A stretch of 64,000 bases of DNA from Bacillus sp. ISL-34 (GTDB taxonomy: Bacteria > Bacillota > Bacilli > Bacillales > DSM-1321): assembly GCF_018613325.1 (NCBI RefSeq), contig NZ_JAGGQJ010000017.1, forward strand, positions 1-64,000. The letters run 5' to 3'. Positions within the stretch are counted from its first letter, which is position 1; each line of letters starts with the position of its first letter. Shown here one piece after another: positions 8,998 through 33,847 of the stretch. The position numbers and the translations under genes are program-made. Under the pieces are notes generated by a model. It saw nothing but the letters and a program-made list of their open reading frames with translations. It was not told where the DNA came from and did not search any database.

Positions 8998-9024
8998 AAA
9001 CCGATTAATTTGATTAATCGGTTT
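8998..9024 (-). terminator. Distal copy of a duplicated terminator
   Basis: AAACCGATTAAT / ATTAATCGGTTT hairpin followed on the minus strand by TTTTTGTTTTT. It is nearly identical to the hairpin at 9270-9294, which is closer to the zinc-ribbon gene. The two copies bracket repeat elements. Confidence 0.75.
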
Positions 9025-9063
9025 CAGACTGTAGTCAAACTCGATAAAAATAAAGTTTGTCTC
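9025..9063. repeat. TAGACAAA-type hairpin element, copy A
   Basis: A degenerate copy of the short element found at 17020-17062, 22823-22868 and 33789-33826: CAGACTGTAGTCAAACTCG followed by a spacer and AAGTTTGTCTC. It directly abuts a terminator stem. Confidence 0.7.
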
Positions 9064-9090
9064 AATTTTTATGAGGGTTTATAAAACCTC

Positions 9091-9231
9091 GAACGTCGTC
9101 GATTTCCACTCCAGGCACTCGCTTTCCGCGGGCGGTCCGGGAGCCTCCTCGGCGCCTTGCGCCTGCGGGGTCTCCCACGACGCGCTTTTCCCGCAGGAGT
9201 CTCGCACCTTTTCGTTCCAATCAACTTTGTT
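9091..9231 (-). repeat. GC-rich intergenic repeat, copy A
   Basis: A GC-rich element in reverse orientation relative to copies at 27620-27757 and 33658-33770. Shared blocks include AACAAAGTTGATTG, GACTCCTGCGGGAAAAGCGC and CCGCCCGCGGAAAGCGAGTG. Its composition stands out sharply against AT-rich flanks. Open frames across it are not real genes. Confidence 0.85.
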
Positions 9232-9269
9232 TTGAATTTTTTGGTAAAACCCCTTTTGTCTAAAAACAA

Positions 9270-9294
9270 AAACCGATTAATTGATAATCGGTTT
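9270..9294 (-). terminator. Terminator of the zinc-ribbon peptide gene
   Basis: AACCGATTA hairpin with ATAATCGGTT, followed on the minus strand by TTTTTGTTTTTAGACAAA. It is the proximal copy of the duplicated terminator. Confidence 0.8.
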
Positions 9295-9319
9295 AATTTA
9301 TAATCTATACCATGGGATA

Positions 9320-9439
9320 TTATTTTTTTGTTTTAACTGAGAATTGATTGCTCAATATCTTAGGACCGCATTGGCATAGGGAAGAATGCTTTAGCTTTTT
9401 TATTGGTGTTCCGCATGTTTCACAAACTTTTGCTGCCAT
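9320..9439 (-). CDS. Small zinc-ribbon-like protein, Fur-boxed
   Basis: A 39-residue protein with a clear ribosome site (AGGAGG) and a CxxC (Cys6, Cys9) and CxC (Cys22, Cys24) pair that could bind one zinc ion. The C-terminus is basic. No named family is recognised. The promoter (-35 AATCAA and -10 ATTATA as written on the plus strand, 16-base spacer) is overlapped by a 15/19 match to the Fur box, so iron-repressed expression is expected. A terminator follows 26 bases after the stop. A role in iron-limited metabolism is inference only. Confidence 0.7.
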   Translation of the reverse strand: MAAKVCETCGTPIKKLKHSSLCQCGPKILSNQFSVKTKK

Positions 9440-9476
9440 TTATACGTCCTCCTCACTTTATTTGCTTGCTATACAT

Positions 9477-9508
9477 ATTATACTACTTTTATAATGATAA
9501 TCAATACT
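9477..9508 (-). promoter_or_regulatory. Promoter and Fur box of the zinc-ribbon peptide
   Basis: On the minus strand TTGATT (9504-9499) and TATAAT (9482-9477) are 16 bases apart. The 19-mer at 9490-9508, TATAATGATAATCAATACT, matches the Fur consensus GATAATGATAATCATTATC at 15 of 19 positions and covers the -35 and spacer. Confidence 0.7.
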
Positions 9509-9620
9509 AAATTAAAATTATTATAAATAAGGCGAGTTTTTGACTTTATTTTATTAGACTTCACAAGTGATTAAAATAAAGATAAAATATAATAAAACAC
9601 ATCAGGAAGGTTGGTGTTGT

Positions 9621-10046
9621 ATGTCGAGAGAAATTCGCTCCATCCCCCGTCCCTTAGTACGTACGAATCAATGGGTCATTTTGTTAAGCGTAGCCACCGC
9701 CTTATTGACGGGACAAATATGGATATTAGTGATTCCTCTAACAGCAGGACTTTTAGGTCTTCTCTTTAATTTCAATCCAGTGATGCGTCTCGCAAAGCTT
9801 TTTCTGAAAAAGAAACCGTCCGATTATATTCCTGAAGATCATTCACAGCAACAATTCAACCAGGCCATAGCAGTCGTTTGCTTAGGACTTGGATTCACTT
9901 CTTTTTTGCTTGGCTGGAATGTTACCGGTTATATATTCACCTTGATGGTCGGCTTGGCTTCCCTCATAGCCATTCTTGGATTCTGCATCGGCTGCTTTAT
10001 CCTTTATCAATGGAAGCAATATTCCTATCGGCGATCTATTCGCTAA
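9621..10046 (+). CDS. DUF4395-like membrane protein
   Basis: A hydrophobic protein of 141 residues with about four TM segments and an N-terminal MSREIRSIPRPLVRTNQW stretch typical of DUF4395 proteins. The ATG at 9621 is chosen over an in-frame start 18 codons upstream because AGGAAGG precedes it and the upstream part is lysine-rich and unlike the family. DUF4395 proteins often accompany thiol-redox or sulfur genes, but none is adjacent here. It converges on the decayed iron permease. Function unknown. Confidence 0.7.
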   Translation: MSREIRSIPRPLVRTNQWVILLSVATALLTGQIWILVIPLTAGLLGLLFNFNPVMRLAKLFLKKKPSDYIPEDHSQQQFNQAIAVVCLGLGFTSFLLGWNVTGYIFTLMVGLASLIAILGFCIGCFILYQWKQYSYRRSIR

Positions 10047-10058
10047 TACTGCACACAA

Positions 10059-10085
10059 ATGGGACTGACACATGTCAGTCCCATT
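10059..10085. terminator. Bidirectional terminator
   Basis: AATGGGACTGACA / TGTCAGTCCCATT with a 2-base loop lies between the convergent DUF4395 gene and the efeU pseudogene; TTATT follows on the plus strand. Confidence 0.8.
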
Positions 10086-10088
10086 TTA

Positions 10089-11309
10089 TTATTCGGTTGC
10101 ACGTAAGGAATTGCTCTTTTTGACCCAAATGGTGGCCAATGCGATCAGCAAAATTAATACAGCTTGCGGCACCAGCGTTTCCATTGTTGGATAAAGACCT
10201 ATCGTTTCTACAAAGGGAAAGGATGTGATCGTATTTGTCTGTATCACCTGCGAAACCTGAAGTGAATGGATGGAGACTCCAAGAATCTTGAAAGCAATGC
10301 ATATATGAGTACCGTTGCCACTTTAAAGAATAGGGTCATCGGTAATTTCACACTATAGCGCAGCATGATGAAACCAATTACCACTAAAATGAGGAAGGCA
10401 AGGAAAATCCCGCTCAGCAGCTGCTTTAATTCCATATAAGGAGCCATACCGGCATAAAAGATAATCGTCTCGGCACCTTCACGAAATATGGATAGAAAAC
10501 TGATCAAAGCGAAAGAGATGATGCTTCCTGTCGCATTGGCTTGGTTCATTTGCTTGTCGATATACCGGTTCCATGCATGAACATTCGATTTACCATGAAG
10601 CCAAAGACCAATTGTCAACATCATCGATACGGCTATTATCCCAGTGATTCCCTCAATATATTCCCGGCTTGACGCAGCCGTGATCTGAGAGAAAACGATA
10701 TTGATTATGACCGCCAATATGGAACTGGCAACTAAACCCGCCCAAACCCTGTCCAAATCCATTTTTGTTTGTCGCTTGCCCGATTTTCTTTAGGAAACAA
10801 TAATGTAGCTACAATCAAGAGTGCCTCCAACCCTTCCCGTAAAAGGATCAAAGCGGCATCCCATGTTGTATAACCCGTATCATCAATTAAAGGGAGTAAC
10901 CTTGTGTTTAAATCGGATACGATTCCCTTCGCTTCATCCGCATTTACCTTTTTCGATTGCAATAGGCTGATTGCTGCCGGGACTTTCGTTTCCATATCGC
11001 TGCAAAGCTTGCTGTCCCTTGTGGAGACCTCCCCTTCGACATTAGGCCAAATTGTTAATATTTCATTTAGCTGATCAACGGCAGATAAGTAACAAGAGTA
11101 CTTGATAATGCCGATAATCGCTTCTTGATTTCATCTGTGGAGGCTTGCTCTCACACAGCACTTTTTACCGCAGATAGCCTCTCGTCGACTTCCCTCGCAC
11201 TCTCGCTTTCCGTTTTTACCGTTTGCCAATCTTTCTCGAAAAGATCGATATTTTTCGATACTTCCTCAAGCTCTCCGGATTTTACCTTCATTTGAAATGA
11301 TAGATTCAT
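10089..11309 (-). pseudogene. efeU: Decayed FTR1/EfeU-family iron permease
   Basis: Both FTR1 signature motifs survive: REGLEALLIV (near 10840) and REGAETIIF (near 10480), with several hydrophobic segments. The reading frame is broken by frameshifts near 10750 and 10275 and by an in-frame TGA near 11145 in the extracytoplasmic N-terminal region. The signal peptide and ribosome site are missing: the Fur box ends 8 bases before the first recognisable codons, which implies a deletion. Intact bacillar relatives are about 480 residues and import ferric iron with EfeO/EfeB partners, neither of which is here. Several independent lesions argue against a single sequencing error. Confidence 0.85.
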
Positions 11310-11316
11310 ATTAGAA

Positions 11317-11335
11317 GATAATGAAAATCATTATA
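11317..11335 (-). promoter_or_regulatory. Fur box of the efeU pseudogene
   Basis: GATAATGAAAATCATTATA matches the 19-base Fur consensus at 17 of 19 positions. It still marks the decayed iron permease as a former Fur target. Confidence 0.8.
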
Positions 11336-11439
11336 AATATATATTTTAATGGAAACGTGACATTGTTCATCCTCTTCGAAAAAATTTCACTCTATCCCTT
11401 TTACTTTTGATAAGAAGCTCACAGATGGCTAAAAATAAA

Positions 11440-11467
11440 AAAGGCAGCCTACATATCGGCTACCTTT
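11440..11467 (-). terminator. Terminator overlapping the MarR gene end
   Basis: AAAGGCAGCC / GGCTACCTTT hairpin (one mismatch) followed on the minus strand by TTTTATTTTT. The stem includes the last codons of the MarR gene. Confidence 0.7.
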
Positions 11468-11939
11468 CCCGCTCACTCATTAATTTGTCATTTTCCTTGT
11501 CCATGATTTTTGTAATATCCTCAATGAATTGATTGATGAATTTTAGCTCTTGTTCATTATAAGCGGAACATAACTCCTTGGTGGCCATAGAGAGCGATTG
11601 ATAGTGTGATTTAATCTGTTCCTGCCTTTCAGGTATCGGTGCAATCATTACCCGTCTTCCGTCCAATTGATCTCGACCTCTTTTAACATAACCGGATTTC
11701 TCAAGGCGATTGATCAGTGCCGTAACCGATCCCGTGCTCAATCCTGTAAGTTTGGATAATTCACCAGCGGTAATCGGTCCTGTTTCATTCAATATTTCAG
11801 CACTCTTCAAGTCCGTATGGGACACCCCTATTTTCTGGGCCATATTTTGTTGAAATAAAACGGATCTCATTCCATACCGCTGCAATCTGTGTGTTAAACT
11901 CTCTAACAAAGCTGCATGCACCCTATTATCGCTTGACAT
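11460..11939 (-). CDS. MarR-family transcriptional regulator
   Basis: A 159-residue winged-helix regulator. The helix-turn-helix (about residues 65-90, GELSKLTGLSTGSVTALINRL) and the wing (GYVKRGRDQLDGRRVMI) are clear. It is transcribed away from the MFS exporter and the shared intergenic space holds a perfect 11+3+11 palindrome, so it very likely represses both genes and responds to an exporter substrate. The ligand is unknown. Confidence 0.88.
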   Translation of the reverse strand: MSSDNRVHAALLESLTHRLQRYGMRSVLFQQNMAQKIGVSHTDLKSAEILNETGPITAGELSKLTGLSTGSVTALINRLEKSGYVKRGRDQLDGRRVMIAPIPERQEQIKSHYQSLSMATKELCSAYNEQELKFINQFIEDITKIMDKENDKLMSERER

Positions 11940-11964
11940 AAAATGCCACCCCTTTTACACTTAA

Positions 11965-11989
11965 ATTTATCTTGATTTTCAAGATAAAT
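11965..11989. promoter_or_regulatory. MarR operator palindrome
   Basis: Perfect half-sites ATTTATCTTGA and TCAAGATAAAT are separated by 3 bases, between the divergent MarR and MFS genes. The form and position fit an autoregulatory MarR operator. Confidence 0.8.
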
Positions 11990-12068
11990 GTTTTGTTTCA
12001 TCTTAACGTTTATCCTTCAACCATGTAAAGGAAATTCATGAGCTGGTTGATACGAAGGAGGAAAATAA

Positions 12069-13583
12069 ATGAACGCTCAAAAAAAACAAAAATTCATTGT
12101 TGCCGGTTTACTATTGGGTATCTTGATGTCAGCAATGGATAATACGATTGTTGCGACTGCAATGGGAACGATCGTTTCTGATTTAGGCGGATTCGATAAG
12201 TTTGTATGGGTGACATCTGCCTATATGGTCGCCACGATGGCAAGCATGCCGATATTCGGTAAGCTTTCCGACATGTATGGAAGAAAGCGGTTTTTTATTT
12301 TTGGACTTATAGTCTTTTTAATCGGTTCCGCATTATGTGGTATGGCTCAGAGCATAGTGCAGTTAAGTATCTTCCGTGCAATCCAGGGGATAGGCGGAGG
12401 CGCTTTGATGCCTATAGCCTTTACGATCATTTTTGATATTTTCCCACCTGAAAAACGCGGAAAATTAACTGGCCTATTCGGCGCTGTATTTGGGGCCTCA
12501 AGCGTATTGGGACCACTTTTAGGTGCTTATATTACTGAATACTCCAGCTGGCACTGGATTTTTTACGTCAATGTTCCAATTGGGATCATTTCTTTATTTT
12601 TCATCTGGAATTATTACAAGGAGTCACCCAACACCCAAGAGCAAAAAGTTGATTGGGGTGGCGCAGCAACTCTCGTCATTGCGGTTATCAGCTTAATGTT
12701 CGCTCTCGAACTAGGCGGGGAGTATGGCTGGAGTTCTTCTCCTATCATAGGTCTGTTTGCCAGTTTTGTGGTTTTCTTCGTTTCATTTTTCTTTTTCGAA
12801 AAAAGAGCAAAAGATCCAATCATTTCATTATGGCTGTTTAAAAGGCGATTATTTGCCACTTCTCAGATTTTAGCCATTCTTTATGGCGGTACATTCATTA
12901 TATTAACCGTATATATCCCGATTTTCGTGCAGGCAGTTTACGGTGGTTCCGCAACAAATGCCGGATTGATCCTAACTCCCATGATGCTTGGTTCTGTATT
13001 CGGCAGTGCAGTTGGGGGGATATTCAATACAAAGACAAGCTTTCGCAACTTAATGACGATTTCCGTCATCTGTTATTTTGCAGGAATGCTTTTATTAGGG
13101 ACCATCACCCCTGATACCAGCAGGACTTTATTAACTTTGTACATGATTTTGACTGGATTTGGCATGGGCTTTTCCTTCTCCCTTTTGCCTATAGCATCCA
13201 TTCACAACCTGGAACCTAGATTCCGGGGGTCGGCCAACTCAACAAACTCATTCCTCCGTTCTTTTGGGATGACACTCGGTGTAACGATTTATGGAGCGAT
13301 TCAGACCAATGTATTCACAAGTAAAATGACGGAGGCGTTTAAAGGAATGCAAGGAAGTCCGGATACAGCCGGATTGATGGAGGACCCAAGACAGCTCTTC
13401 CAATCGGACGCACGTGCCGAGATTCCGGACTTTATCCTGGATAAAATCGTACATGCGATGTCCGATTCGATATCATTGATATTCACCTTGGCTCTCATTC
13501 CGATCGGTCTTGCAGCAATCACTGTGTTCTTCATGGGAAAAACAAGAGTGGAAACACCTTCAAAAAAGGAATACTTACAATAA
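12069..13583 (+). CDS. DHA2-type MFS drug exporter
   Basis: A 504-residue, 14-TM major facilitator of the DHA2 (EmrB/QacA) type. MDNTIV in TM1 is the motif D1 typical of the family, GKLSDMYGRKR is motif A after TM2, and GGGALMPIAF and GAVFGASSVLGPLLGA correspond to motifs B and C. It should export toxic compounds using the proton gradient. The ribosome site GAAGGAGG lies 7 bases before the ATG. Expression is probably controlled by the divergent MarR through the palindrome at 11965. The substrate is not predictable. Confidence 0.88.
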   Translation: MNAQKKQKFIVAGLLLGILMSAMDNTIVATAMGTIVSDLGGFDKFVWVTSAYMVATMASMPIFGKLSDMYGRKRFFIFGLIVFLIGSALCGMAQSIVQLSIFRAIQGIGGGALMPIAFTIIFDIFPPEKRGKLTGLFGAVFGASSVLGPLLGAYITEYSSWHWIFYVNVPIGIISLFFIWNYYKESPNTQEQKVDWGGAATLVIAVISLMFALELGGEYGWSSSPIIGLFASFVVFFVSFFFFEKRAKDPIISLWLFKRRLFATSQILAILYGGTFIILTVYIPIFVQAVYGGSATNAGLILTPMMLGSVFGSAVGGIFNTKTSFRNLMTISVICYFAGMLLLGTITPDTSRTLLTLYMILTGFGMGFSFSLLPIASIHNLEPRFRGSANSTNSFLRSFGMTLGVTIYGAIQTNVFTSKMTEAFKGMQGSPDTAGLMEDPRQLFQSDARAEIPDFILDKIVHAMSDSISLIFTLALIPIGLAAITVFFMGKTRVETPSKKEYLQ

Positions 13584-13609
13584 ACAAAAAGCCTTGCAGA
13601 GGAACTAAT

Positions 13610-13753
13610 GGTGCCATTGATCCGATATTCGACCCCATATTAAGTCGTCCTGCGACTTGGGTCGCTTGATACCTCACTTCAGAAGGATACCAGCAAATGA
13701 ACCTGGCCATATTCAGTGGTCTGCATATGGAAGAGGATATGCTTCCTAAGCCA
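13610..13753 (+). pseudogene. Possible coding remnant, unrecognised
   Basis: One frame reads as plausible protein (GAIDPIFDPILSRPATWVA, a TGA, then YLTSEGYQQMNLAIFSGLHM and MEEDMLPKPYN) with no start or ribosome site. It may be the worn end of a gene. I do not recognise the family. Confidence 0.3.
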
Positions 13754-13762
13754 TATAACAGT

Positions 13763-13793
13763 AAAAAGGCAAAGCATGGCGCTTTGCCTTTTT
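13763..13793. terminator. Terminator of the deformylase gene
   Basis: A 13-bp stem AAAAAGGCAAAGC / GCTTTGCCTTTTT with a 5-base loop gives T-runs on either strand, so it can serve transcription from both sides. Confidence 0.85.
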
Positions 13794-13796
13794 GGT

Positions 13797-14375
13797 TTAC
13801 AGACTTTTCACTTCCACGTTTTCCGGAAGCTTGAAAGGGTTTTCGGTATTGATCCGGTCATAAAACATGATCCCGTTTAAATGATCTAACTCATGTTGAA
13901 ACACGATTGCAGCAAAGCCCTTCAGCCGCATCTCTATTTCCTCACCATTACCGTCCAAAGCTTTAATTTTAACCCGTTCATAACGCGGTACATATCCTTT
14001 AATATCACGGTCGACTGAAAGGCAGCCTTCACTTTGAGGTAAATAGATCATTGTGGCAGAATGGCTGATGATTTTCGGATTCACAAGGGCATATTCAAAC
14101 AGCTTCCCCTTTTCGTCTGGAAAATACATGACGAACATGCGTTTATTCAAGCCTATCTGATTGGCAGACAACCCAACGCCTTCACGCAAATTGTACTTCT
14201 TTTGGAGTTTTGGGTCCTGGCTATTTTTCAGGTATTGCATCATGCATTCCAACGTTTCACGATCTTCATCCGAAATCGGCAGGCTGACTTCATCCGTTAC
14301 CTGACGCAGAATGGGATCTCCTTCTCTAACGATATCCTTCATCGTAATCATATAGTCTTTTATAAATTTACTCAT
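13797..14375 (-). CDS. def: Peptide deformylase (YkrB/DefB-like)
   Basis: Removes the formyl group from nascent proteins in the cytoplasm using a bound metal ion. All three motifs are intact: GVGLSANQIG, EGCLSV (metal-ligand Cys) and QHELDHLNG (two His ligands and catalytic Glu). At 192 residues with insertions before motif 2, it belongs to the larger Gram-positive type like B. subtilis YkrB. The start is either 14375 or the internal MITMKD at 14351, which matches the usual family start; neither has a strong ribosome site. It is a single-gene unit with its own terminator. Confidence 0.92.
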   Translation of the reverse strand: MSKFIKDYMITMKDIVREGDPILRQVTDEVSLPISDEDRETLECMMQYLKNSQDPKLQKKYNLREGVGLSANQIGLNKRMFVMYFPDEKGKLFEYALVNPKIISHSATMIYLPQSEGCLSVDRDIKGYVPRYERVKIKALDGNGEEIEMRLKGFAAIVFQHELDHLNGIMFYDRINTENPFKLPENVEVKSL

Positions 14376-14629
14376 AGAACTTCACACTCTTCTACCATTT
14401 TATTTTTTCATGACTTAGACCATTTCACTTTAGCATTTCGTATTTAAAAAGTCTAATATCCAGGTTAGATTAAATACTTCTAAATACCGGACTTCATTCT
14501 TTAATTTTTCACAAAATATGTAATTTCTTCACCTTTACATTATTTACCTTTAATTTAAGGTATAAAGGCCTATAGATTACATGTTTAAAAATTTTATACT
14601 GAATATATATACTTAAAGGAGATGAAAAA

Positions 14630-16363
14630 TTGAACTCGAACTCTAAATTAGTTTCGAAATTGCTGCCGTTCCTGACGGCTCTCATTGTGATAATTTCTGG
14701 AATCAGTTGGTATGTTGTCACTCAGTCAAAGGATATGGTCATTCCCTTTTCTTCGGTGGAAAAGACGATTAAAGCCCAAAATGGAGCCCTTGTCACCATT
14801 GAAGAAAAAAGAAATGGCACTCTTCACATCTCCACGCCAGATGGAGAATACGTTTCCAGTATTCCTCCCAACAGTCAAATGATCAATAAACTTGTCGAAA
14901 CTTATAACGTTCAATATTCTTTTTCATCAACTAATAAATCAGCATTATGGATTTTAGGCGGATTAATGGCGGCACTCGTCATAACCGCTGTCATTATACA
15001 AAAAAAATCAAAGGGCGGATTGCGGATCGGCAGTAAAAAACAAAGCCTTTCCACCCCAAAGCCCCTGCCAGAGATAACTTTGGATGATGTAGGCGGTTTG
15101 CAATCCGAAATCAAACAGGAAATCCTACAGACACTCACTACACTAAAGGAACCTGAACGTTCAGCTAAAATTGGAATTAAGCCGCCTCAAGGCATTTTAT
15201 TATACGGCCCCCCTGGAACGGGGAAAACCTTGCTTGCACAGGCAATCGCAAAAGAGCTTGGTGCAAACTTCTTCTCAACGAGCGGTTCAGCCTTCAACGA
15301 AATGTTTGTTGGAGTCGGTGCTGCCCGTGTCCGCAGCCTTTTCCAAAATGCACGTAAGCAATCGCCAGCTGTCATTTTCATTGATGAAGTCGACGCGTTG
15401 GCTGGTAAAAGGAAAGCTCATGGCGGGGAAGAAGGCGAAAAAACGTTAACTGAACTGCTTGTGCAATTGGATGGAGGCCATCCAAATGAAGGCATTTTAT
15501 TCATTGCAGCGACCAACCGGAAAGATATGCTCGATGAGGCATTTCTACGTCCGGGCAGGATCGATTTCTCTTTCCAAGTTCCACTTCCGGATACACAAGG
15601 AAGAAAGGAAATCATCAATATCCATACGAAGGGAAAGCGTCTAGCGACAGATGTCCTTGCTTCCCTGGATGAGTTGGCTGAAAGCACATCCGGTTTCTCC
15701 GGTGCTGACTTAAGCTCCCTGTTCGATACTGCATCACGTCATGCCCTGAGGAATGAACAGGATATGATTCGTAAACAGGATCTTGATTACGCCATTGACC
15801 GCACGATACTTGGAGCGACATCACGTACCTTGAATGATGTGGATACTAAGCGGCGCGTGGCCATTCATGAAAGTGGACATGCCCTGATTGCAGCTTTGAC
15901 AAAGCCCGGTTCCGTTCGAAAGGCGACCATCATTCCGCGTGGGGAAGCCCTTGGATATGTAGCGCCAATACCTAAAGAACTCCATCTGGCAACAGCCAGT
16001 GAATTGCTTGATCAAGTCAAAATGATTTTAGCAGGTGGCGTGGCGGAAAGAATGTATTTAGGAGAACATAGCATCGGTGTAGGCGGAGATGTGCAACAGG
16101 CGAAACATCTACTTGAACAAATGGTCGATACCGGAATGCTTCAAGATGGATTTACCCTCACCTTTAATAAAGGTGAGAAGGAGCAAAAGATGCAGGAATT
16201 ATTCACGAAAGCGATTTCTGAAACGGAAATGTTGATTGACTCGAATCGCCTACAGTATGAAGAGCTTGTTGAAGAGTTATTGAAAAAAGAGACACTTGAG
16301 GGATCTGAAGTTCAGCGTATCGTTGATGCTTCAGAAATAACCAGCATATGCTCAAATGCTTAA
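14630..16363 (+). CDS. FtsH-like AAA+ membrane metalloprotease
   Basis: A membrane protease of 577 residues. TM1 (about 9-30), a short extracytoplasmic domain, TM2 (about 104-124), an AAA+ module with Walker A GPPGTGKT (193-200), Walker B VIFIDEVD (248-255) and the SRH with RPGR, then an M41 peptidase domain with zinc motif HESGH (413-417). It starts with TTG after a strong AAAGGAGATG. It is about 60 residues shorter than housekeeping FtsH and is probably a paralogue, because ftsH normally lies in the tilS-hpt region. Substrates are unknown. Confidence 0.85.
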   Translation: MNSNSKLVSKLLPFLTALIVIISGISWYVVTQSKDMVIPFSSVEKTIKAQNGALVTIEEKRNGTLHISTPDGEYVSSIPPNSQMINKLVETYNVQYSFSSTNKSALWILGGLMAALVITAVIIQKKSKGGLRIGSKKQSLSTPKPLPEITLDDVGGLQSEIKQEILQTLTTLKEPERSAKIGIKPPQGILLYGPPGTGKTLLAQAIAKELGANFFSTSGSAFNEMFVGVGAARVRSLFQNARKQSPAVIFIDEVDALAGKRKAHGGEEGEKTLTELLVQLDGGHPNEGILFIAATNRKDMLDEAFLRPGRIDFSFQVPLPDTQGRKEIINIHTKGKRLATDVLASLDELAESTSGFSGADLSSLFDTASRHALRNEQDMIRKQDLDYAIDRTILGATSRTLNDVDTKRRVAIHESGHALIAALTKPGSVRKATIIPRGEALGYVAPIPKELHLATASELLDQVKMILAGGVAERMYLGEHSIGVGGDVQQAKHLLEQMVDTGMLQDGFTLTFNKGEKEQKMQELFTKAISETEMLIDSNRLQYEELVEELLKKETLEGSEVQRIVDASEITSICSNA

Positions 16364-17012: not shown

Positions 17013-17019
17013 GAAAAAA

Positions 17020-17062
17020 ACTGCAGGCAAACTCGCTTTTCTTCGAGTTTGTCTACAGTCTG
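17020..17062. repeat. TAGACAAA-type hairpin element, copy B
   Basis: An inverted repeat: on the minus strand TGTAGACAAACTCG pairs with CGAGTTTGCCTGCAG and is followed by TTTTTTT. It directly abuts the ptsG-type terminator on the downstream side and is nearly identical to the copy at 22823-22868. Confidence 0.85.
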
Positions 17063-17097
17063 AAGGGATGTCGACAAAGTCGACATCCCTTTTTTTA
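17063..17097. terminator. Terminator of the GlcNAc PTS gene
   Basis: A 13-bp stem AAGGGATGTCGAC / GTCGACATCCCTT with a 3-base loop lies just after the nagE stop. The T-run is stronger in the plus direction. Confidence 0.75.
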
Positions 17098-22763: not shown

Positions 22764-22795
22764 TTCGATTCAGCCATAAAGGAATACATAATTAA

Positions 22796-22822
22796 AGAAG
22801 GCATCCATGCGGATGCCTTCTT
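22796..22822 (+). terminator. Terminator of the SIS gene (first copy)
   Basis: A hairpin with the core CATCCATGCGGATG and CCTTCTT downstream. A near-identical hairpin occurs at 23178-23200, with repeats between them. Confidence 0.8.
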
Positions 22823-22868
22823 ACTGTAGACAAACTCGAAGAAAAGCGAGTTTGCCTGCAGTTTTTTT
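22823..22868 (+). repeat. TAGACAAA-type hairpin element, copy C
   Basis: ACTGTAGACAAACTCG and CGAGTTTGCCTGCAG form an imperfect hairpin followed by TTTTTTT. It abuts the first terminator copy. It matches copy B almost exactly. Confidence 0.88.
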
Positions 22869-22894
22869 ATTTGAAAATGTTTCAGTTGATTTCA

Positions 22895-23010
22895 GCCGGA
22901 GCACTTTTTTCGGCCGCACGCGCAGTTTTTTCGACCGTTCACGATTTTATTCGACCTACCCCGCACTTTATTCGACCGTTCACGATTTTTATTCAACCTT
23001 CACCTCATTA
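22895..23010. repeat. Degenerate short tandem repeats (TTCGACC units)
   Basis: Units of about 20-22 bases recur, for example TTCGACCGTTCACGATTTTA (twice), with related TTCGACCTACC and TTCAACCTTCACC variants. A long open frame across this stretch starts inside the terminator and has no family likeness. I regard it as non-coding repeat DNA. Confidence 0.65.
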
Positions 23011-23177
23011 TTCGGACTCCGGAGCATTTATTTTGCGGACCACTCATTAAATTCGCTCCCTTTTTCGCAGACTGTCTGCCAACTCCTCCCCCAAGCATCT
23101 AGCGGGGTTATTCGGCGAGGAGTGTCGCAAATTCATTCAATCCAGGGAGGTTCCATCCATATTTATTCGACAAACTA

Positions 23178-23200
23178 AAAGGCATCCATGCGGATGCCTT
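23178..23200. terminator. Second copy of the duplicated terminator
   Basis: AAGGCATCC / GGATGCCTT hairpin just beyond the stop of the MMPL exporter on the opposite strand; it can terminate both convergent units. Confidence 0.8.
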
Positions 23201-23213
23201 CTTTAATTTAAGT

Positions 23214-26795: not shown

Positions 26796-26814
26796 CGGTG
26801 CACCTCCCAAAAAA

Positions 26815-26892: not shown

Positions 26893-26918
26893 GTTTAACT
26901 TATGGTAAATAAGGGAAA
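26893..26918 (+). promoter_or_regulatory. Sigma-B-type promoter of the YtxH-like gene
   Basis: GTTTAA (26893-26898) and GGGAAA (26913-26918) are 14 bases apart. The -35 is a perfect sigma-B match and the -10 is a good one. It lies 47 bases before the start codon. Confidence 0.7.
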
Positions 26919-26964
26919 ACCCAAAGTAAGCAAATAATCTACTATTCTAAAGGAGGAAATATAA

Positions 26965-27507: not shown

Positions 27508-27516
27508 TATATAAAA

Positions 27517-27541
27517 AAGCTGAGGCATGATGCCTCAGCTT
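27517..27541 (+). terminator. Terminator of the YtxH-like gene (first copy)
   Basis: AAGCTGAGGCAT / ATGCCTCAGCTT hairpin. A near copy with a mismatch lies at 27780-27810. Confidence 0.85.
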
Positions 27542-27545
27542 CACT

Positions 27546-27562
27546 TTGTAGACAAAAGGGGT
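27546..27562 (+). repeat. TAGACAAA-type element, short copy D
   Basis: TTGTAGACAAAAGGGGTT lies directly after the terminator stem. The same TAGACAAAAGGGGTT block occurs on the minus strand next to the terminator at 9270. Confidence 0.65.
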
Positions 27563-27619
27563 TCGGAACACGTATTAACACCTTCAACTCCTTAGATATG
27601 GTTTCTATCTATATTTAAT

Positions 27620-27757
27620 AACAAAGTTGATTGAGTGGAAGGTGCGAGAATCCTGCGGGGAAAGCGCGTCTAGGGAAGACCCCGCGGGCGCATGCCGAGG
27701 AGGCTCCCTGACCGCCCGCGGAAAGCGAGTGCCTGGGGCAGAAATCAACGTCCAAAT
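27620..27757 (+). repeat. GC-rich intergenic repeat, copy D
   Basis: A full-length copy of the GC-rich element: AACAAAGTTGATTG at the left edge, CCTGCGGGGAAAGCGCGTC, CCGAGGAGGCTCCCTGACC, CCGCCCGCGGAAAGCGAGTG, and GAAATCAACGTCC at the right edge. The ends carry GTTGATT and AATCAAC, a terminal inverted repeat. Confidence 0.88.
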
Positions 27758-27779
27758 TGTATAAGCCATAAAAAAACAA

Positions 27780-27810
27780 AAGCTGAGGCATTAAGCCCCA
27801 GCTTTTTTTT
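27780..27810. terminator. Second copy of the duplicated terminator
   Basis: AAGCTGAGGCATTAAGCCCC with AGCTT and an eight-base T-run; shares its stem with 27517-27541. It also lies at the 3' end of the convergent prsA-like gene. Confidence 0.8.
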
Positions 27811-27835
27811 CCATATATCATTTCACTCGATGTTC

Positions 27836-28726
27836 TTAGTTAGAACTCTCTAATTTATTCGTTATCTCATGGTCTTTTTTCACTTCAGCCAACCAAACTG
27901 GATATTCCTCTTGTAATTTTTCAGAAAGAAGCGTTTCTTTAATTACATCTTTACTGTCTTCTAAATTAGCTTTTTTCGCTTCCTTCTTACCGGTTACTTT
28001 TATGATATGGTAACCATAATCAGTTTTGACTGGATCACTGACTTTATTTATATCAAGATCAAAGGCAACATCCTCAAACTCAGCAACCATATCGCCTTTC
28101 CCAAAATATCCTAGGCTTCCACCGTTATCCGCCGTTTCAGTATCCGTGGAATATTCAGCCGCCAATTTAGCGAAATCACCGCCATCTGCGATTTCTTTTG
28201 CAACTTTTTTAGCCGTTTTTTCGTCTTCGACTAAAATATGACTGGCTTCCACTTGTTCCGCTTGAGCAAATGTTTCTTTATTATCCTCAAAATAAGTACT
28301 GATTTCATCGTCCGTCACGGTAATTCTCGGTTCGACCAGTTTTTTCGTTTGCAGATAAACCACGATGTCCTTTTTTAAGGCTTCCATGGAAGAACCGCTT
28401 GCTTCCAATTGCTTTTTTAATGCCTTTTCATCACCATAGGACTCAGCCATAACATCGATTTCTTTCTGGATTTCTTCATCCTTAATTTTAATTCCTGCTT
28501 TTTCCGCTTCCATTTCAACCAGTTTATTCGTAATTAAAAGGTCTAAAGTATCTGCTCCGTATCCCGCAACAAGCGCGTCATACAGCTCATCCTTATTGAT
28601 TTTCTTGCCATCGATACTAGCCATTGTCTTATCACTGGACGAAATCATCGCAAATGCCATGATCCCGGCAATGATTAAAATGCTCCCTGCCCAAATATAT
28701 GCCTTCGTGCTTCTTAAAAGTTTCAT
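27836..28726 (-). CDS. PrsA-like peptidyl-prolyl isomerase / foldase
   Basis: A membrane-anchored extracytoplasmic foldase of 296 residues. An N-terminal TM (about 10-30) is followed by a SurA-like N-domain (about 38-130), a parvulin rotamase domain (about 140-235; SHILV, GGDFAKLAAEYSTD, GGSLGYFGKGDMV and GYHIIKV) and a helical C-terminus. It helps fold secreted proteins. No lipobox cysteine follows the hydrophobic segment, so it looks like a YacD-like TM-anchored form, not the PrsA lipoprotein. The single-gene unit converges on the YtxH-like gene. Confidence 0.85.
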   Translation of the reverse strand: MKLLRSTKAYIWAGSILIIAGIMAFAMISSSDKTMASIDGKKINKDELYDALVAGYGADTLDLLITNKLVEMEAEKAGIKIKDEEIQKEIDVMAESYGDEKALKKQLEASGSSMEALKKDIVVYLQTKKLVEPRITVTDDEISTYFEDNKETFAQAEQVEASHILVEDEKTAKKVAKEIADGGDFAKLAAEYSTDTETADNGGSLGYFGKGDMVAEFEDVAFDLDINKVSDPVKTDYGYHIIKVTGKKEAKKANLEDSKDVIKETLLSEKLQEEYPVWLAEVKKDHEITNKLESSN

Positions 28727-28977
28727 GAATACTCTCCCTTAATTTTTCTATTATGATAGCTTGGAAATATTAATTAATCCTTAAGATTTTAGTTCCGCGC
28801 TCACTATTCACTAATCCAATCATTATACTAACATACTTAAATCTCTACAGATATTTTAGAGTATTTCTCTTCTACCAATTTGCATTGAGATTTTGGTTAC
28901 TCATTACAAAAAACGTAATTATTCCGTTATATCGATTTTTGATATATAGGTAACAGAGTGCCAAAAACACAGAAACG

Positions 28978-29022
28978 AAAAAGCATGGTGTACGGAGGGA
29001 ATTCCTACACCATGCTTTTTTC
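28978..29022 (-). terminator. Terminator of the polyamine operon
   Basis: A 15-bp stem AAAAAGCATGGTGTA / TACACCATGCTTTTT just beyond potD; T-runs occur on both sides. Confidence 0.88.
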
Positions 29023-29026
29023 TGTG

Positions 29027-30100
29027 TTATTTACGATGCATCTTGAATTCAAGGAAGAGTTCGTTGTAATGGGCCAAGTTTTTCTTCCCCAGGTTTTCGT
29101 ACACTTCCAGTTTCTTTGTCAGTTCCGGCGATGGATAGAAACGTTCATCCTTCACCACTTCTTCCGGCATATATTTCAGTGCTTCTTTATTAGGTGTCGA
29201 GTAACTTACATATTCAGCATTCTGTGCCGCAACTTTCGGGTCCAGCATGAAGTTGATGAACTGGTGAGCCGCATCGACATTTTTGGTTGTTTTCGGGATG
29301 ACCATATTATCAAACCATAAATTGGACCCCTCTTTTGGAACAACGTATTCGAGATCTTCATTTTCAGCCATGATTTCTGAAGCAACACCTGACCAAACCA
29401 GACCAATCGCCGCTTCCTGGGCTTCCAATAGCATGCGGCTTTCATCTCCGACGATCGCTTTAATATTCGGGGTGAGGGCATCAAGCTTGGCTTTTGCCTC
29501 TTGAAGGTGTTCTTCATTTATATCATTCAATGAATATTTCAAAGAGTTCAGGCCCATGCCCATCACTTCTCTAGCTCCATCCGTCAAAAGGATTTCATTT
29601 TTTAAATCTTTATCCCATAAATCCGCCCATGCCGTTATTTCCTTTCCACCGAGCATCTTGGAATTGTAAACAATTCCAACCGTTCCCCAGAAATACGGCA
29701 CGGAATATTTATTCTCCGGATCAAATGGCAGATCGATGAATCGCTCATCGATATTTTTCAAATTCGGAAGCTTGGAATGATCCAAGGGAACGAGCAAGTC
29801 TTCTTGCCTCATCTTATCGATCATGTACTCAGACGGAATGGCAATATCATAAGTCGTACCGCCCTGTTCGATCTTTGTCATCATGGCCTCATTCGAATCA
29901 AATGTCTCATAAATGACCTTTATGCCCGTCTCTTCTTCGAAACGTTCGATTAGATCGGTATCGATGTAATCGCCCCAATTATAGATGGTAAGCGTATTGC
30001 TGCTCGTAAATCCCTGCGATGAATTCAATCTTGAAATCGCATATAGCAGCAAAGCGGATACGAGGGAAATGATCAAAAACATTTGGACAAGCCTTTTCAT
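29027..30100 (-). CDS. potD: Spermidine/putrescine-binding protein
   Basis: The extracytoplasmic solute receptor of the polyamine ABC importer, 357 residues. The PotD/PotF fold signatures are clear: TIYNWGDYIDTDLIERFEEETG near residue 37 and the YDIAIPSEYMI segment. The N-terminal hydrophobic segment (5-24) has no lipobox cysteine, so anchoring as an uncleaved helix is likely. It overlaps potC by 4 bases and is the last gene of the potABCD operon. Confidence 0.92.
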   Translation of the reverse strand: MKRLVQMFLIISLVSALLLYAISRLNSSQGFTSSNTLTIYNWGDYIDTDLIERFEEETGIKVIYETFDSNEAMMTKIEQGGTTYDIAIPSEYMIDKMRQEDLLVPLDHSKLPNLKNIDERFIDLPFDPENKYSVPYFWGTVGIVYNSKMLGGKEITAWADLWDKDLKNEILLTDGAREVMGMGLNSLKYSLNDINEEHLQEAKAKLDALTPNIKAIVGDESRMLLEAQEAAIGLVWSGVASEIMAENEDLEYVVPKEGSNLWFDNMVIPKTTKNVDAAHQFINFMLDPKVAAQNAEYVSYSTPNKEALKYMPEEVVKDERFYPSPELTKKLEVYENLGKKNLAHYNELFLEFKMHRK

Positions 30101-30900
30101 CGTTTCCCCCCCATTCCCGTTTGCCTTAAACGTTGAGTTATAAAGTAATAAACGACAACCAACAGCAGTGTCACGACGAACAGCAGTGTCGATAGTGCAT
30201 TGATATTCAATGAAATTCCACGGCGTGCCAATGAATAGATTTCCACAGAAAGAGTGGAGAAACCATTACCGGTCACAAAGAATGTAACCGCAAAATCATC
30301 AAGCGAATAAGTCAATGCCATAAAAAAACCAGCAAAGATACCTGGTGAGATATATGGAAGGATGACCTTCGTCAATACATCCAACCGGCTTGCCCCTAAA
30401 TCTCGGGCCGCATCAATTAAAGTAGGGCTCATTTCCTGAAGTTTCGGAAGGACCAGCAGCACAACGATCGGGATACTGAAGGCGATATGCGACAACAGTA
30501 CCGAGTAGAATCCAAGCTTGATCCCGGCCATCGTGAATAAAATCAGGAAGGAAGCACCGATGATCACATCGGGACTGACAATCAAAACATTATTCAATGA
30601 CAATACCGTATTCTTAGCTTTGCTGCTCGTAAAGGACCGAATTCCAATCGCCCCTATCACCCCGATGATCGTTGCAATCAGGGCAGATAATAAAGCAATC
30701 ACAAGAGTATTCAATACAATGATCAACAGCCTTGTATCTTGGAATAGCTCCTTGTACCAATCCATCGTGAACCCTTTAAAGTCATACATCGTTCCACCGC
30801 TGTTAAAAGAGTAGAAGACTAAAAAGAAAATCGGTGCATAGAGTATGAGAAAAATCAAAACGAGAAACGCTTTTGATATTGGTGATAATTTAGTACCCAT
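30097..30900 (-). CDS. potC: Polyamine ABC transporter permease PotC
   Basis: A 267-residue membrane permease with six TM segments and the EAA-loop-type motif DAARDLGASRLDVLTKVILP near residue 170. The ATG at 30900 follows potB by a single base; the in-frame GTG three codons upstream sits in the ribosome site. It forms the translocation channel with PotB. Confidence 0.92.
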   Translation of the reverse strand: MGTKLSPISKAFLVLIFLILYAPIFFLVFYSFNSGGTMYDFKGFTMDWYKELFQDTRLLIIVLNTLVIALLSALIATIIGVIGAIGIRSFTSSKAKNTVLSLNNVLIVSPDVIIGASFLILFTMAGIKLGFYSVLLSHIAFSIPIVVLLVLPKLQEMSPTLIDAARDLGASRLDVLTKVILPYISPGIFAGFFMALTYSLDDFAVTFFVTGNGFSTLSVEIYSLARRGISLNINALSTLLFVVTLLLVVVYYFITQRLRQTGMGGKR

Positions 30901-30901
30901 T

Positions 30902-31705
30902 TTACACACCCTGCTTTCGGTTACCCGTTACAAACATAATCAGGAACATTATAATAATCAAAAATACCGCGATTGTGGAACCCATTCCCCAATCCTGTGT
31001 CACAAGGAAGTGCTGCTCGATAGCCGTACCAAGCGTAATGACGCGGTTACCGGCAATCAGTCTTGTAAGCATGAACAATGAAAGTGCCGGAATGAAGACT
31101 ACCTGGCATCCCGTCTTTACACCATCCATCGTCAATGGAAAAATGACTCGGCGGAATGTCATCCATCGGGACGCCCCCAAGTCATTGGCCGCATCAAGAA
31201 GGGTTGGATTCATTTCATCAAGCGCATTGAATATCGGTAAGATCATGAACGGGATGAAAATATAAACCGAAACGAATATGAAGCTGAAATCCGTAAAAAG
31301 AATCTGCTGCTTTCCGATTCCTACCGCCTCCAGAAAACCATTCGCCACACCATACGTGCCAAAAATACCAATGAAGGCATAAGCCTTCAAAAGTAAATTG
31401 ATCCAGGAAGGTACGATGATCAGCAAAAGCCACAACTGCTTATGCTTGGTTTTCGTTAACAAATATGCTGTCGGGTAAGCAACTAAAAGGGATATTCCCG
31501 TAATCAGGAACGCATACCAAAATGAGCTTAAAGTCATTTTTAAATATACTGGCGTAAAGAACTTTTGATAGTTAATCAAAGATAGATTGCCTTCAATATC
31601 AAAGAAGGAATAGTAAAGGATCAACAAAATGGGTGCGATCACGAATAAAGCAATCCATAGGACATAGGGTATGAAGTAAATATTGCGGGATATTTTATTC
31701 TTCAT
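30902..31705 (-). CDS. potB: Polyamine ABC transporter permease PotB
   Basis: A 267-residue permease with six TM segments and the coupling motif [19 protein letters not shown]. The ATG at 31705 is used: it has GGGGAAAG upstream, overlaps the potA end by 11 bases and matches the family N-terminus. The longer in-frame start at 31777 would sit deep inside potA. Confidence 0.92.
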
Positions 31706-32804
31706 GACTTTCCCCATCATGATACGCTTCCAGACGCTTGTCGAATTCCTCTTCAGTTTCGCCCAATCGCATGACATGGATAGATTCTGGATCGAAATAA
31801 AGACCTATTTCATCTCCAACTGCCACTTTTCTCGTCGATTGGACAAGCCATTCATTTCCATCATGGTCATAGCAGCTGATTTCATAATGAACACCGCGAA
31901 ATAGCTGGGAGTCCACCCGAACTTGCAGTTTCCCGCGATTGACGGTAGTAATCTCTAAATCTTCCGGGCGGATGACAATATCGACAGCTTCATTACTGTT
32001 CAATCCTTGGTCGACACATTCGAACTGTCTGCCGACGAATTCCACGAGGTAATCTTCAATCATTTTTCCTTTTACAATATTGGACTCACCGATGAAATCG
32101 GCAACAAATCGATTCAGCGGTTCATCATAAATATCCGTAGGGGTCCCGCTTTGCTGTATTTTCCCTTTGTTAAGGACAAAAATCTCATCTGACATCGCTA
32201 ATGCTTCCTCTTGGTCATGAGTGACGAAGATAAACGTGATTCCAAGCCTCTGTTGCAGCTCCCGCAATTCATATTGCATTTCTGTACGCAATTTCAAATC
32301 GAGGGCAGATAGTGGTTCATCAAGAAGGATGACTTCCGGTTCATTAACGATCGCCCTGGCAATCGCTACCCGTTGCCGCTGACCCCCGGACATTTCCCTG
32401 ATCTCCCGTTTTTCATAACCCTCCAAATTAACAAAGCTGAGGGCTTCCTTCACCTTTAATTCCACTTCCGAATTTTTCATTTTTTTTATCCGAAGACCAA
32501 ATGCTACATTTTCAAACACATTTAAATGCGGAAAAAGTGCATAATCTTGAAATACCGTATTCACTTGCCTTTTATTGGCTGGCACATCATTGATCTTTTT
32601 TCCTTCAAAGTAAATATCACCTTTGGAGGCTTCCGTAAAACCGGCAATCAAGCGAAGGATCGTCGTCTTCCCACACCCAGAAGGACCCAAGAGCGTATAG
32701 AACTTCCCCCTCTCGATTTCAAAACTAACATTATCGAGAACTACCGTATCATCATCGAATTGCTTCGTAACCTGATCGAAGCGTATTATATTCCCGTTTG
32801 CCAT
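31695..32804 (-). CDS. potA: Polyamine ABC transporter ATP-binding protein
   Basis: The cytoplasmic ATPase of the importer, 369 residues. Walker [10 protein letters not shown] (near 39), signature [14 protein letters not shown], Walker [13 protein letters not shown] and a C-terminal TOBE domain (about 285-350) are present. It is the second gene after the XRE-cupin regulator and leads the transport genes. Confidence 0.94.
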
Positions 32805-32867
32805 AGCTTCTTCCCTCTCTCCATTACCTTACTCATCACTCTTCAACGATTGCATTTGTTTTGAATT

Positions 32868-33413
32868 CTATAAGTAAGATTCCGTCACCACGAGTAATAA
32901 CTCGGACGGACCTTCAAAATCATTGATGATTTGATGTTCATCTGAAGCATGAAAATAAATCGATTCCCCTGCTTTGACGAAATACGTATGTTTACCAAGC
33001 TTTACAATGATTCTTCCGCTTAATACATAGCCGAACGTTTCCGACAAGGATGGTTCAAATTGTTTGAACTCCCCTTTTTCCTGGAGAGTCAGTCGTATAG
33101 GTTCCATTTCCTTCTCATTCGATTCAGGCACGAGCCACTGGATTTGATACCCGCGTTCTTCATCGATGAAAAATGTTTGTGCCTCTTCTTCATACACTAC
33201 TTTTTGGACCTGATCCTCTTCATCGAAGAACTGCTTCGGCTTGCAGCCAAGCACTTCTAAAATATTGAAAAGAGTTTCAATTGAAGGGGAACTAAGATCC
33301 CTTTCCAACTGTGAAATATATCCTTTGCTTAAATCCGTTCTTTCCCCCAATTCTTCCTGGGTCAATCCTTTTTTCAAGCGAAGATTCTTTATTTTTTTTC
33401 CAATTTGCATCAT
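32868..33413 (-). CDS. XRE-family regulator with cupin domain
   Basis: A 181-residue PuuR-like regulator with an N-terminal XRE helix-turn-helix (IKNLRLKKGLTQEELGERTDLSKGYISQLE) and a C-terminal cupin (about 105-181) that likely senses a small ligand. It is 63 bases ahead of potA on the same strand and probably controls the polyamine operon. Two GTTTAC-type repeats lie upstream as candidate operators. The start may be the first or second of two adjacent ATG codons. Confidence 0.85.
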   Translation of the reverse strand: MMQIGKKIKNLRLKKGLTQEELGERTDLSKGYISQLERDLSSPSIETLFNILEVLGCKPKQFFDEEDQVQKVVYEEEAQTFFIDEERGYQIQWLVPESNEKEMEPIRLTLQEKGEFKQFEPSLSETFGYVLSGRIIVKLGKHTYFVKAGESIYFHASDEHQIINDFEGPSELLLVVTESYL

Positions 33414-33426
33414 ATTACCCTCAATC

Positions 33427-33477
33427 GGTTTACTTATAGTAAACCCAAAGTAGATAAAGTTTTATATAAGTAAACTT
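33427..33477. promoter_or_regulatory. Operator region of the XRE-pot operon
   Basis: The perfect palindrome GGTTTACTTATAGTAAACC (33427-33445) is followed by a second, imperfect site with half-sites AAGTTTTA and AAGTAAACTT (33457-33477). Both lie just upstream of the regulator gene and fit autoregulation. Confidence 0.7.
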
Positions 33478-33550
33478 TCAGTTTAATTTTACGAATATCA
33501 TTATACAGGAAATGATGGAAACTTCAAACAGAATTTCCAGTCATGATAAA

Positions 33551-33576
33551 AAAGGACCGCCACATGGCAGTCCTTT
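33551..33576 (-). terminator. Distal copy of the hemY terminator
   Basis: AAAGGACCGCC / GGCAGTCCTTT hairpin, with T-rich sequence on the minus strand. A degraded copy lies at 33826-33847, nearer to hemY. Confidence 0.75.
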
Positions 33577-33657
33577 CTGATTTACTATTCATGTTTAGAA
33601 AGTATCTTTATCACCTTAATTTTAAAAATAGGTAAAAGGGTTTTATCTATAAGGTAA

Positions 33658-33770
33658 AACAAAGTTGATTGGAGCGTAAGGTACGAGACTCCTGCGGGAA
33701 AGCGCGCCGAGGAGGTTCCCGTACCGCCCGCGGAAAGCGAGTGCCTGGGGTAGAAATCAACGTTCCAATT
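33658..33770 (+). repeat. GC-rich intergenic repeat, copy E
   Basis: A shorter copy (113 bases) of the GC-rich element, lacking about 25 bases between AAAGCGCG and CCGAGGAGG that are present in copies A and D. The edges AACAAAGTTGATTGG and GAAATCAACGTTCC are conserved. Confidence 0.87.
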
Positions 33771-33788
33771 TTACAAACACTCAAAAAA

Positions 33789-33826
33789 ACTGTAGATAAT
33801 TTTCCCCGAGTTTGTCTAAAGTCTGA
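33789..33826. repeat. TAGACAAA-type hairpin element, copy E
   Basis: ACTGTAGATAATTTTCCCC and CGAGTTTGTCTAAAGTCTGA abut the proximal hemY terminator arm; a degenerate copy of the element at 17020. Confidence 0.7.
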
Positions 33827-33847
33827 GACCGCTACCTGGCAGTCCCC
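33826..33847 (-). terminator. Proximal copy of the hemY terminator, degraded arm
   Basis: On the minus strand GGACTGCCAGGTAGCGGTC then CAGACTTTAGACAAA, compared with GGACTGCCATGTGGCGGTCC then TTTTTT at the distal copy. The 3' arm and T-run are replaced by the hairpin element. Confidence 0.6.

What the first reader, a model, noticed from the sequence alone, without database searches (positions are those of the whole stretch)
8998..33847. Repeat payloads bracketed by duplicated terminators at four loci
At 8998/9270, 22796/23178, 27517/27780 and 33551/33826 two near-identical copies of a locus-specific terminator hairpin flank a repeat payload. The terminator sequence differs between loci, so the repeat does not carry it; each locus's own terminator was duplicated. 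In each case a TAGACAAA-type sequence abuts the terminator. At 17020-17097 a single terminator is followed by the same hairpin. This looks like a small element that targets terminator stems and leaves a long target duplication, or one copied with its target.
Basis: partly seen in the sequence, partly recalled or inferred. Interest (0 to 1): 0.75.

Follow-up and report, generated by a model that had tools for sequence, protein, structure and literature searches.

The report
Jumping genes that duplicate whole terminators
These repeats are decayed relatives of a bacterial jumping gene of the IS1182 family that lands on transcription-terminator hairpins and leaves a complete copy of the hairpin on each side, so the target's shape appears to set the length of the duplication.

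Summary
At four window loci, two near-identical copies of a locus-specific terminator hairpin bracket an element with IS-like ends (CAGACTGTAGACAAA...TTTGTCTACAAACTG); a fifth copy is truncated. They are transposase-less or decayed relatives of an IS1182-family insertion sequence (an intact relative scores 460 bits against NF033551, cut-off 270). Relatives lacking the element carry one terminator: 10 of 13, 4 of 14 and 7 of 13 genomes at three window loci, and 8 of 16 and 13 of 15 at two intact IS copies. Of 70 copies analysed (80 fetched), 66 have direct duplications of at least 15 bp, 58 exact, 16-35 bp long. In 56 of 58 the duplication is centred exactly on the hairpin dyad; 54 of 58 are palindromic against 109 of 200,000 random windows. 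In a transposase tree the trait clusters in one branch. I infer that the transposase joins its ends at both 5' feet of an extruded hairpin or cruciform. The relative IS1272 is published as deleting its target hairpin; whole-hairpin duplication appears in that paper as a hypothetical pathway. Hairpin targeting is known; this outcome is a new variant.

The parts
8998..9024 (.). site 1, left copy of terminator hairpin (AAACCGATTAAT...ATTAATCGGTTT)
9025..9269 (+). site 1, transposase-less IS1182-family element: left end CAGACTGTAGTCAAACTCG, payload module, right-end remnant CCCCTTTTGTCTA
   Evidence: ends compared with intact copies
9270..9294 (.). site 1, right copy of terminator hairpin
17018..17062 (-). 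site 5, truncated copy: only the left-end hairpin remains
17063..17096 (.). site 5, single terminator hairpin with T-run
22794..22822 (.). site 2, left copy of terminator hairpin
   Evidence: (D14); single in 10 of 13 relatives
22824..23176 (+). site 2, decayed element: left end CTGTAGACAAACTCG, 41-bp repeat array, eroded right end
   Evidence: (D5)
23177..23204 (.). site 2, right copy of terminator hairpin
27513..27541 (.). site 3, first copy of terminator hairpin
   Evidence: (D4); single in 4 of 14 relatives
27542..27777 (-). site 3, element with the IS right end first (TTTGTAGACAAAAGGGGTTCGG) and payload module; left end eroded
27778..27805 (.). site 3, second copy of terminator hairpin
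33550..33576 (.). site 4, first copy of terminator hairpin
   Evidence: single in 7 of 13 relatives
33577..33825 (-). site 4, element with payload module and left end CAGACTTTAGACAAACTCG (reverse strand); right end eroded
33826..33851 (.). site 4, second, diverged copy of terminator hairpin

Best explanation
The payloads are transposase-less or decayed relatives of an IS1182-family insertion sequence (intact copies about 1.55-1.75 kb). The element inserts at intrinsic-terminator hairpins of any sequence. SHOWN by comparison: insertion adds the element plus one extra full copy of the hairpin, as a direct duplication centred on the hairpin's dyad; empty sites have one hairpin; duplication length varies with the hairpin. 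INFERRED: the DDE transposase recognises the extruded hairpin or cruciform as a structure and joins the element's two 3' ends at the two 5' feet of the stems, which lie side by side at the four-way junction whatever the stem length; repair of the two single-stranded hairpins gives two complete copies. INFERRED: the window copies do not move by themselves and were mobilised by, or decayed from, full copies. PREDICTED: the element's left end is itself a strong hairpin followed by a T-run, so it may restore termination on the side whose T-run was displaced.
For: Family: NF033551 460.1 bits, cut-off 270; Pfam DDE models. Link to window: same ends run into a transposase start or flank a deleted transposase in the window's own genome. 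Empty sites. Duplications: 58 of 70 exact, 66 of 70 with up to 2 mismatches, 16-35 bp. None of the 66 is inverted, although 64 of 66 hairpins are asymmetric enough to tell. Pairing at least 0.8 in 54 of 58 against 109 of 200,000 random windows and 0 of 116 own-flank windows; centre on the blind hairpin centre in 56 of 58. Length follows hairpin core: r 0.77, n 57, 0 of 10,000 permutations as high; r 0.84, n 51. A- or T-tract at 56 of 58 targets against 3577 of 50,000 random windows. Breadth.
Against: No experiment. Four of 70 copies lack the duplication; two have different hairpins at the two ends. A cruder hairpin measure correlates only 0.44, and the full symmetric stem 0.35. In 39 of 51 cases more A:T pairs were available outside the joins, so the joins are not at the foot of the longest possible stem. 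In L347 the second hairpin copy is the reverse complement of the first, which plain duplication does not explain. At site 3, 4 of 9 filled relatives have a single hairpin.
Confidence: 0.8

Rival explanations
1. The transposase reads a linear dyad: a dimer binds A-tract and T-tract half-sites, no hairpin is extruded, and palindromes are hit only because terminators have such tracts.
For: Joins fall in A/T tracts, and 56 of 58 targets have an A- or T-tract.
Against: Spacing between joins varies from 16 to 35 bp yet stays centred on the dyad in 56 of 58; a fixed dimer on linear DNA would not give this. Stem symmetry extends through the core.
Confidence: 0.12
2. Fixed-length stagger: the enzyme cuts about 26 bp apart and prefers sites near hairpins.
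For: Lengths cluster at 22-28 bp; length varies less than expected if core and added pairs were independent (17 of 10,000 permutations as low).
Against: Range 16-35 bp, tracking the core, with exact centring in 56 of 58.
Confidence: 0.03
3. Pre-existing double terminators, or tandem duplication by slippage, into which the repeat later moved.
For: Convergent gene pairs sometimes have two terminators (general knowledge).
Against: Relatives without the element have one hairpin at five loci.
Confidence: 0.02
4. The hairpin is met as single-stranded DNA at the replication fork, or as a transcription-linked structure, and not as an extruded cruciform.
For: Terminators also fold in single strands; orientation and replication strand were not tested here.
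Against: Joining on both strands, needed for a direct duplication, is simpler on a cruciform; elements occur in both orientations at the same terminator.
Confidence: 0.2

Closest known systems
IS1272 and TnSha1 (IS1182 family, staphylococci; PMC5678879, PMC4923244)
   Same: Same transposase family by name; target hairpins, often terminators, of unrelated sequence (sections and passages read).
   Different: Reported to delete the target hairpin wholly or in part, without target duplication. Here the hairpin is duplicated whole. Wan et al. draw duplication by attack at the 5' feet as pathway b of a model figure, as a possibility.
ISEfa7 (IS1182-like, Enterococcus faecium)
   Same: Its copies give 54-55% identity to L140; a copy annotated only as IS1182 family (L358) has the same end motif and is flanked by AATAGAGCTTTTCAGCTCTATT on both sides. 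So a close kin of a named IS behaves alike.
   Different: L358 itself is not annotated ISEfa7; whether ISfinder records the duplication could not be checked.
ISPse1 (IS1182 family, Paracoccus; PMC3281130)
   Same: Named member of the family.
   Different: Listed with a 4-bp repeat (table passage), so the outcome is not family-wide.
Bacterial MITEs (review PMC10969869, passages)
   Same: Short, transposase-less, with the ends of an autonomous element.
   Different: The passages seen do not mention IS1182-derived MITEs or whole-terminator duplication.
Group IIC introns (recalled)
   Same: Insert next to terminators (recalled).
   Different: Retroelements with a ribozyme; no group II intron match in the window at Rfam gathering thresholds.

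Membership tests
IS1182 family insertion sequence (full copies) | Transposase over the curated family cut-off | tested here: met
   L140 protein: NF033551 460.1 bits, cut-off 270; window genome itself: PF13751 over cut-off in 5 of 7 matches
IS1182 family insertion sequence (full copies) | Terminal inverted repeats of about 15-16 bp | tested here: met
   CAGACTGTAGACAAA / CAGTTTGTAGACAAA at the two ends
IS1182 family insertion sequence (full copies) | Palindromic targets, reported for some members | tested here: met
   54 of 58 exact duplications palindromic
MITE of an IS1182-family element (window copies) | Short, no transposase, ends of an autonomous element in the same genome | tested here: met
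   236-353 bp, no transposase; the same ends with transposase pieces in the same genome. An end is eroded at sites 2-4, so decayed full copies cannot be told from true MITEs there
MITE of an IS1182-family element (window copies) | Mobilised in trans by the full element | not testable with these tools
   needs an experiment
IS1272-type stem-loop replacement | Target hairpin deleted, no target duplication | tested here: not met
   66 of 70 copies have the duplicated hairpin; empty sites
Group II intron at terminators | Group II intron RNA | tested here: not met
   no match in the window at gathering threshold nor in four loci

The most novel reading that the evidence does not exclude
A clade of DDE transposases integrates by DNA shape: it grips an extruded hairpin or cruciform at its four-way junction and joins both element ends at the 5' feet, so the length of the target duplication is programmed by the target and not by the enzyme. 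The element brings its own terminators, so landing in terminators costs the host little. Duplication here and deletion in IS1272 would be two outcomes of one junction-directed chemistry (5' feet against 3' feet).
Probability: 0.5. Interest if true: 0.75.

Novelty: new variant of a known kind. Interest (0 to 1): 0.6.

Why it matters
DDE transposons are usually recognised by a short target duplication of nearly fixed length (general knowledge). Here it runs from 16 to 35 bp and follows the target's hairpin. A pathway drawn as a possibility for IS1272 thereby gains many natural examples, in a branch of the same family. How a transposase reads DNA shape becomes testable with simple stem mutants. 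It also explains terminator-flanked repeats in Bacillaceae genomes, which can otherwise look like locus-specific duplications.

Tried and rejected
Considered and rejected: the repeat carries its terminator (hairpins are locus-specific); pre-existing double terminators (empty sites have one); known structured RNA (window matches only glmS and cspA; none in four element loci); fixed-length stagger.

Led nowhere or gave less: empty sites for two intact copies, L140 and L153, could not be read in any of 18 and 14 relatives' loci because the flanks lie in variable regions. Site 5's left flank is rearranged, and site 1 has both flanks in one relative only. A first pass over 58 diverse IS1182 loci missed reverse-oriented loci and was redone. 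In the tree L241 sits on a branch of length 10, probably a wrong reading frame, several other long branches are unsure, and the root is arbitrary. The partner copies expected if L144 and L195 were recombinants were not among the fetched loci. IS1272 was not fetched or placed on the tree. Two IS reviews are not held; I know what they say about this family only through citing papers. ISfinder is not on hand; I recall, from no call, that it lists the family with very variable repeat lengths.
Full report
WHAT IS THERE. The window is contig 9, bases 1-64000, of a 5.38-Mb genome in 54 contigs. At the four named loci two copies of a locus-specific hairpin bracket an element of 236-353 bp; at the fifth a truncated left end abuts one terminator. 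GTAGACAAACTCG has 48 exact matches in the genome, the reversed pattern 0; within the window alone and with 3 mismatches the motif is not above chance. The 48 lie in 37 distinct sites; at 30 of 37 a hairpin of at least 6 bp ends within 4 nt of the element edge, against 290 of 5000 random positions. Of the seven misses, by eye, L024 and L069 matched on the inner arm and have a hairpin beside the outer arm, L001 is imperfect, and L006, L007, L022 and L081 show no clear hairpin.

WHAT IT IS. At contig ends L010, L018 and L029 the same left end runs into a transposase start. The copy at contig 10 near 112.4-113.5 kb has both ends, an internally deleted transposase and a duplicated hairpin. PF13751 gives 7 matches in the genome, 5 over the cut-off. 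An intact relative (L140, 455 aa) matches NF033551, the IS1182-family transposase, with 460.1 bits, cut-off 270, and Pfam DDE models. So the window elements are transposase-less or decayed relatives of an IS1182-family IS. The 118-aa C-terminal fragment has matches in 34 of 36 same-genus genomes.

EMPTY SITES. Fourteen relatives (91-97% identical over the 1509-base query) were fetched over the window region. Where both flanks were found (junctions read by eye): site 2, 10 of 13 have one hairpin and no element, 2 are filled with two hairpins, 1 has an IS remnant; site 3, 4 of 14 have one hairpin and no element, 9 are filled (5 with two hairpins, 4 with one), 1 has a different insert; site 4, 7 of 13 have one hairpin and no element, and 6 of 6 filled ones have two copies (one degenerate in G008); site 1, the one informative relative is filled, with two hairpins; site 5 is not informative. 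Elements at sites 3 and 4 occur in both orientations among relatives, so a terminator can be hit more than once. For two intact IS copies of G016: at L219, 8 of 16 relatives with both flanks have one hairpin and no insert, the window's own genome among them, and 8 carry inserts; at L218, 13 of 15 have one hairpin and no IS, the other two being diverged. The L140 and L153 sites were uninformative.

THE DUPLICATION IS THE HAIRPIN. Eighty copies from six genomes were fetched. Ten were dropped before the count because the exact end motif was missing at an end (L184, L191, and L210-L217 from G012). Of the 70 left, from five genomes, 58 have an exact duplication of at least 15 bp and 66 one with up to 2 mismatches; exact lengths 16-35 bp, median 26. 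The four failures: L144 and L195 have different hairpins at the two ends, L201 has a 1-base indel, L199 is degenerate. Because 64 of the 66 hairpins are not perfect palindromes, direct and inverted copies can be told apart: all are direct. Symmetric pairing of at least 0.8 holds in 54 of 58, against 109 of 200,000 random windows and 0 of 116 windows from their own flanks; a hairpin finder blind to the duplication puts the hairpin centre exactly on the duplication centre in 56 of 58; a second finder did so in 55 of 58. Length follows the hairpin core: r 0.77 in 57 (0 of 10,000 permutations as high) and 0.84 in 51 symmetric cases. Cruder measures gave 0.44 and 0.35. Joins lie in the A- and T-tracts, most often 1 or 3 A:T pairs outside the core on each side. 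In 39 of 51 more A:T pairs were available outside, and shorter cores carry more added pairs (r -0.41; length spread as low in 17 of 10,000 permutations), so the joins are not simply at the foot of the longest stem. Of 58 targets, 56 have an A- or T-tract, 41 both, against 3577 of 50,000 random windows, as expected of intrinsic terminators.

HOW WIDE. A scan of named genomes gave 362 related loci, of which the best 80 are kept (Peribacillus, Cytobacillus, Mesobacillus, Metabacillus, Priestia, Neobacillus, Pseudoneobacillus, Ureibacillus, Lysinibacillus, Domibacillus, Sporosarcina and unplaced Bacillus; some overlap the G genomes). Of these 80, 73 have an exact repeat of at least 16 bp, and 61 are palindromic by the strict centred test; several others look like palindromes shifted by a chance base, by eye. 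Of 58 more diverse IS1182 loci, 9 had a long repeat with inverted repeats by script, with symmetry 0.69-1.0. Reading the ends of seven others: L300 has an exact hairpin duplication; L347 has a hairpin at both ends whose second copy is the reverse complement of the first; L309 and L335 have different hairpins at the two ends; L329, L334 and L337 show a hairpin at the one end visible. In the tree of 76 transposases, 26 of 27 rows labelled palindromic lie on one side of a supported branch (99/89) with 33 rows; the odd one, L241, is on an artefactually long branch. The seven unlabelled rows there (L300, L309, L329, L334, L335, L337, L358) have a hairpin at each end that could be read. Outside it, seven elements with ends like GAGRCCACTGAAAAA gave 8-9-bp repeats, four of them GGACGGTTC-like. 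For the remaining loci outside, ends were not found, so absence of the trait there is not shown. A Peribacillus plasmid copy (L360) and an E. faecium plasmid copy (L358) also have whole-hairpin duplications; ISCfr1 (L359) showed none by eye.

HOW IT WORKS. Shown: target type, whole-hairpin direct duplication, dyad centring, empty sites. Inferred: in a cruciform the two 5' feet of the stems lie side by side at the junction whatever the stem length; a DDE transposase joining its two 3' ends there would leave each flank with one single-stranded copy of the hairpin, and repair makes both double-stranded. Wan et al. 2017 (PMC5678879; abstract, sections 22-24, part 1 of section 29 and passages seen) draw this as pathway b while reporting deletion for IS1272. 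Furi et al. 2016 (PMC4923244; passages) report partial deletion of hairpins without duplication. A 2025 paper (PMC12056078; passages) says IS1182-related elements transpose with or without duplication or deletion of the target. Both earlier papers cite Siguier et al. for palindromic targets; the reviews I tried are not held. Ten full-text searches listed no further paper that I recognised as describing whole-hairpin duplication, but for most hits I saw listings only. The IS left end folds as a 20-bp hairpin with a T5 run (-33.6 kcal/mol, z -10.5), the right end as a weaker one (z -3.95); that they act as terminators is a prediction.

VERDICT. It is a member of a known family with a known taste for hairpins, and a new variant in its outcome.

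Noticed in passing
window 9090-9233, 27625-27750, 33656-33762; left ends of L220, L230, L263, L271, L272: The payload (GC-rich, GTTGATT...CCGCGGGCGG...CTCCTGCGGG...AATCAAC) is a module in the left untranslated end of some full IS copies (length class about 1.71-1.76 kb) and absent from others (about 1.55-1.58 kb); its place relative to the transposase start differs between Lysinibacillus and Peribacillus copies. Its core has 50 matches in the window's genome, reversed control 0. What it does is unknown.
   Followed up: partly
window 22905-22986 and the site 2 orthologues in G024 and G025: 41-bp tandem TTATTCGACC-type units inside the site 2 payload; more units in G024 and G025.
   Followed up: no
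window 39758-40523: Four to five tandem repeats of about 167 bp, 67-93% alike to the reference copies, probably coding.
   Followed up: no
L322, L323, L342, L346: Another IS1182 branch (ends GAGRCCACTGAAAAA) is bracketed by GGACGGTTC / GAACCGTCC-like 9-mers, which suggests a preferred target of its own.
   Followed up: no
L347; possibly L025 of the window's genome: The hairpin copy on one side of L347 is the exact reverse complement of the other; L025 looks similar by eye. Plain duplication does not predict this.
   Followed up: partly
L144, L195, L309, L335: Different hairpins at the two ends of one IS copy, perhaps recombination between copies; partners were not found for L144 and L195.
   Followed up: partly
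sites 3 and 4 in relatives; L454, L455, L466: The same terminator carries elements in opposite orientations in different relatives, so it was hit more than once.
   Followed up: partly
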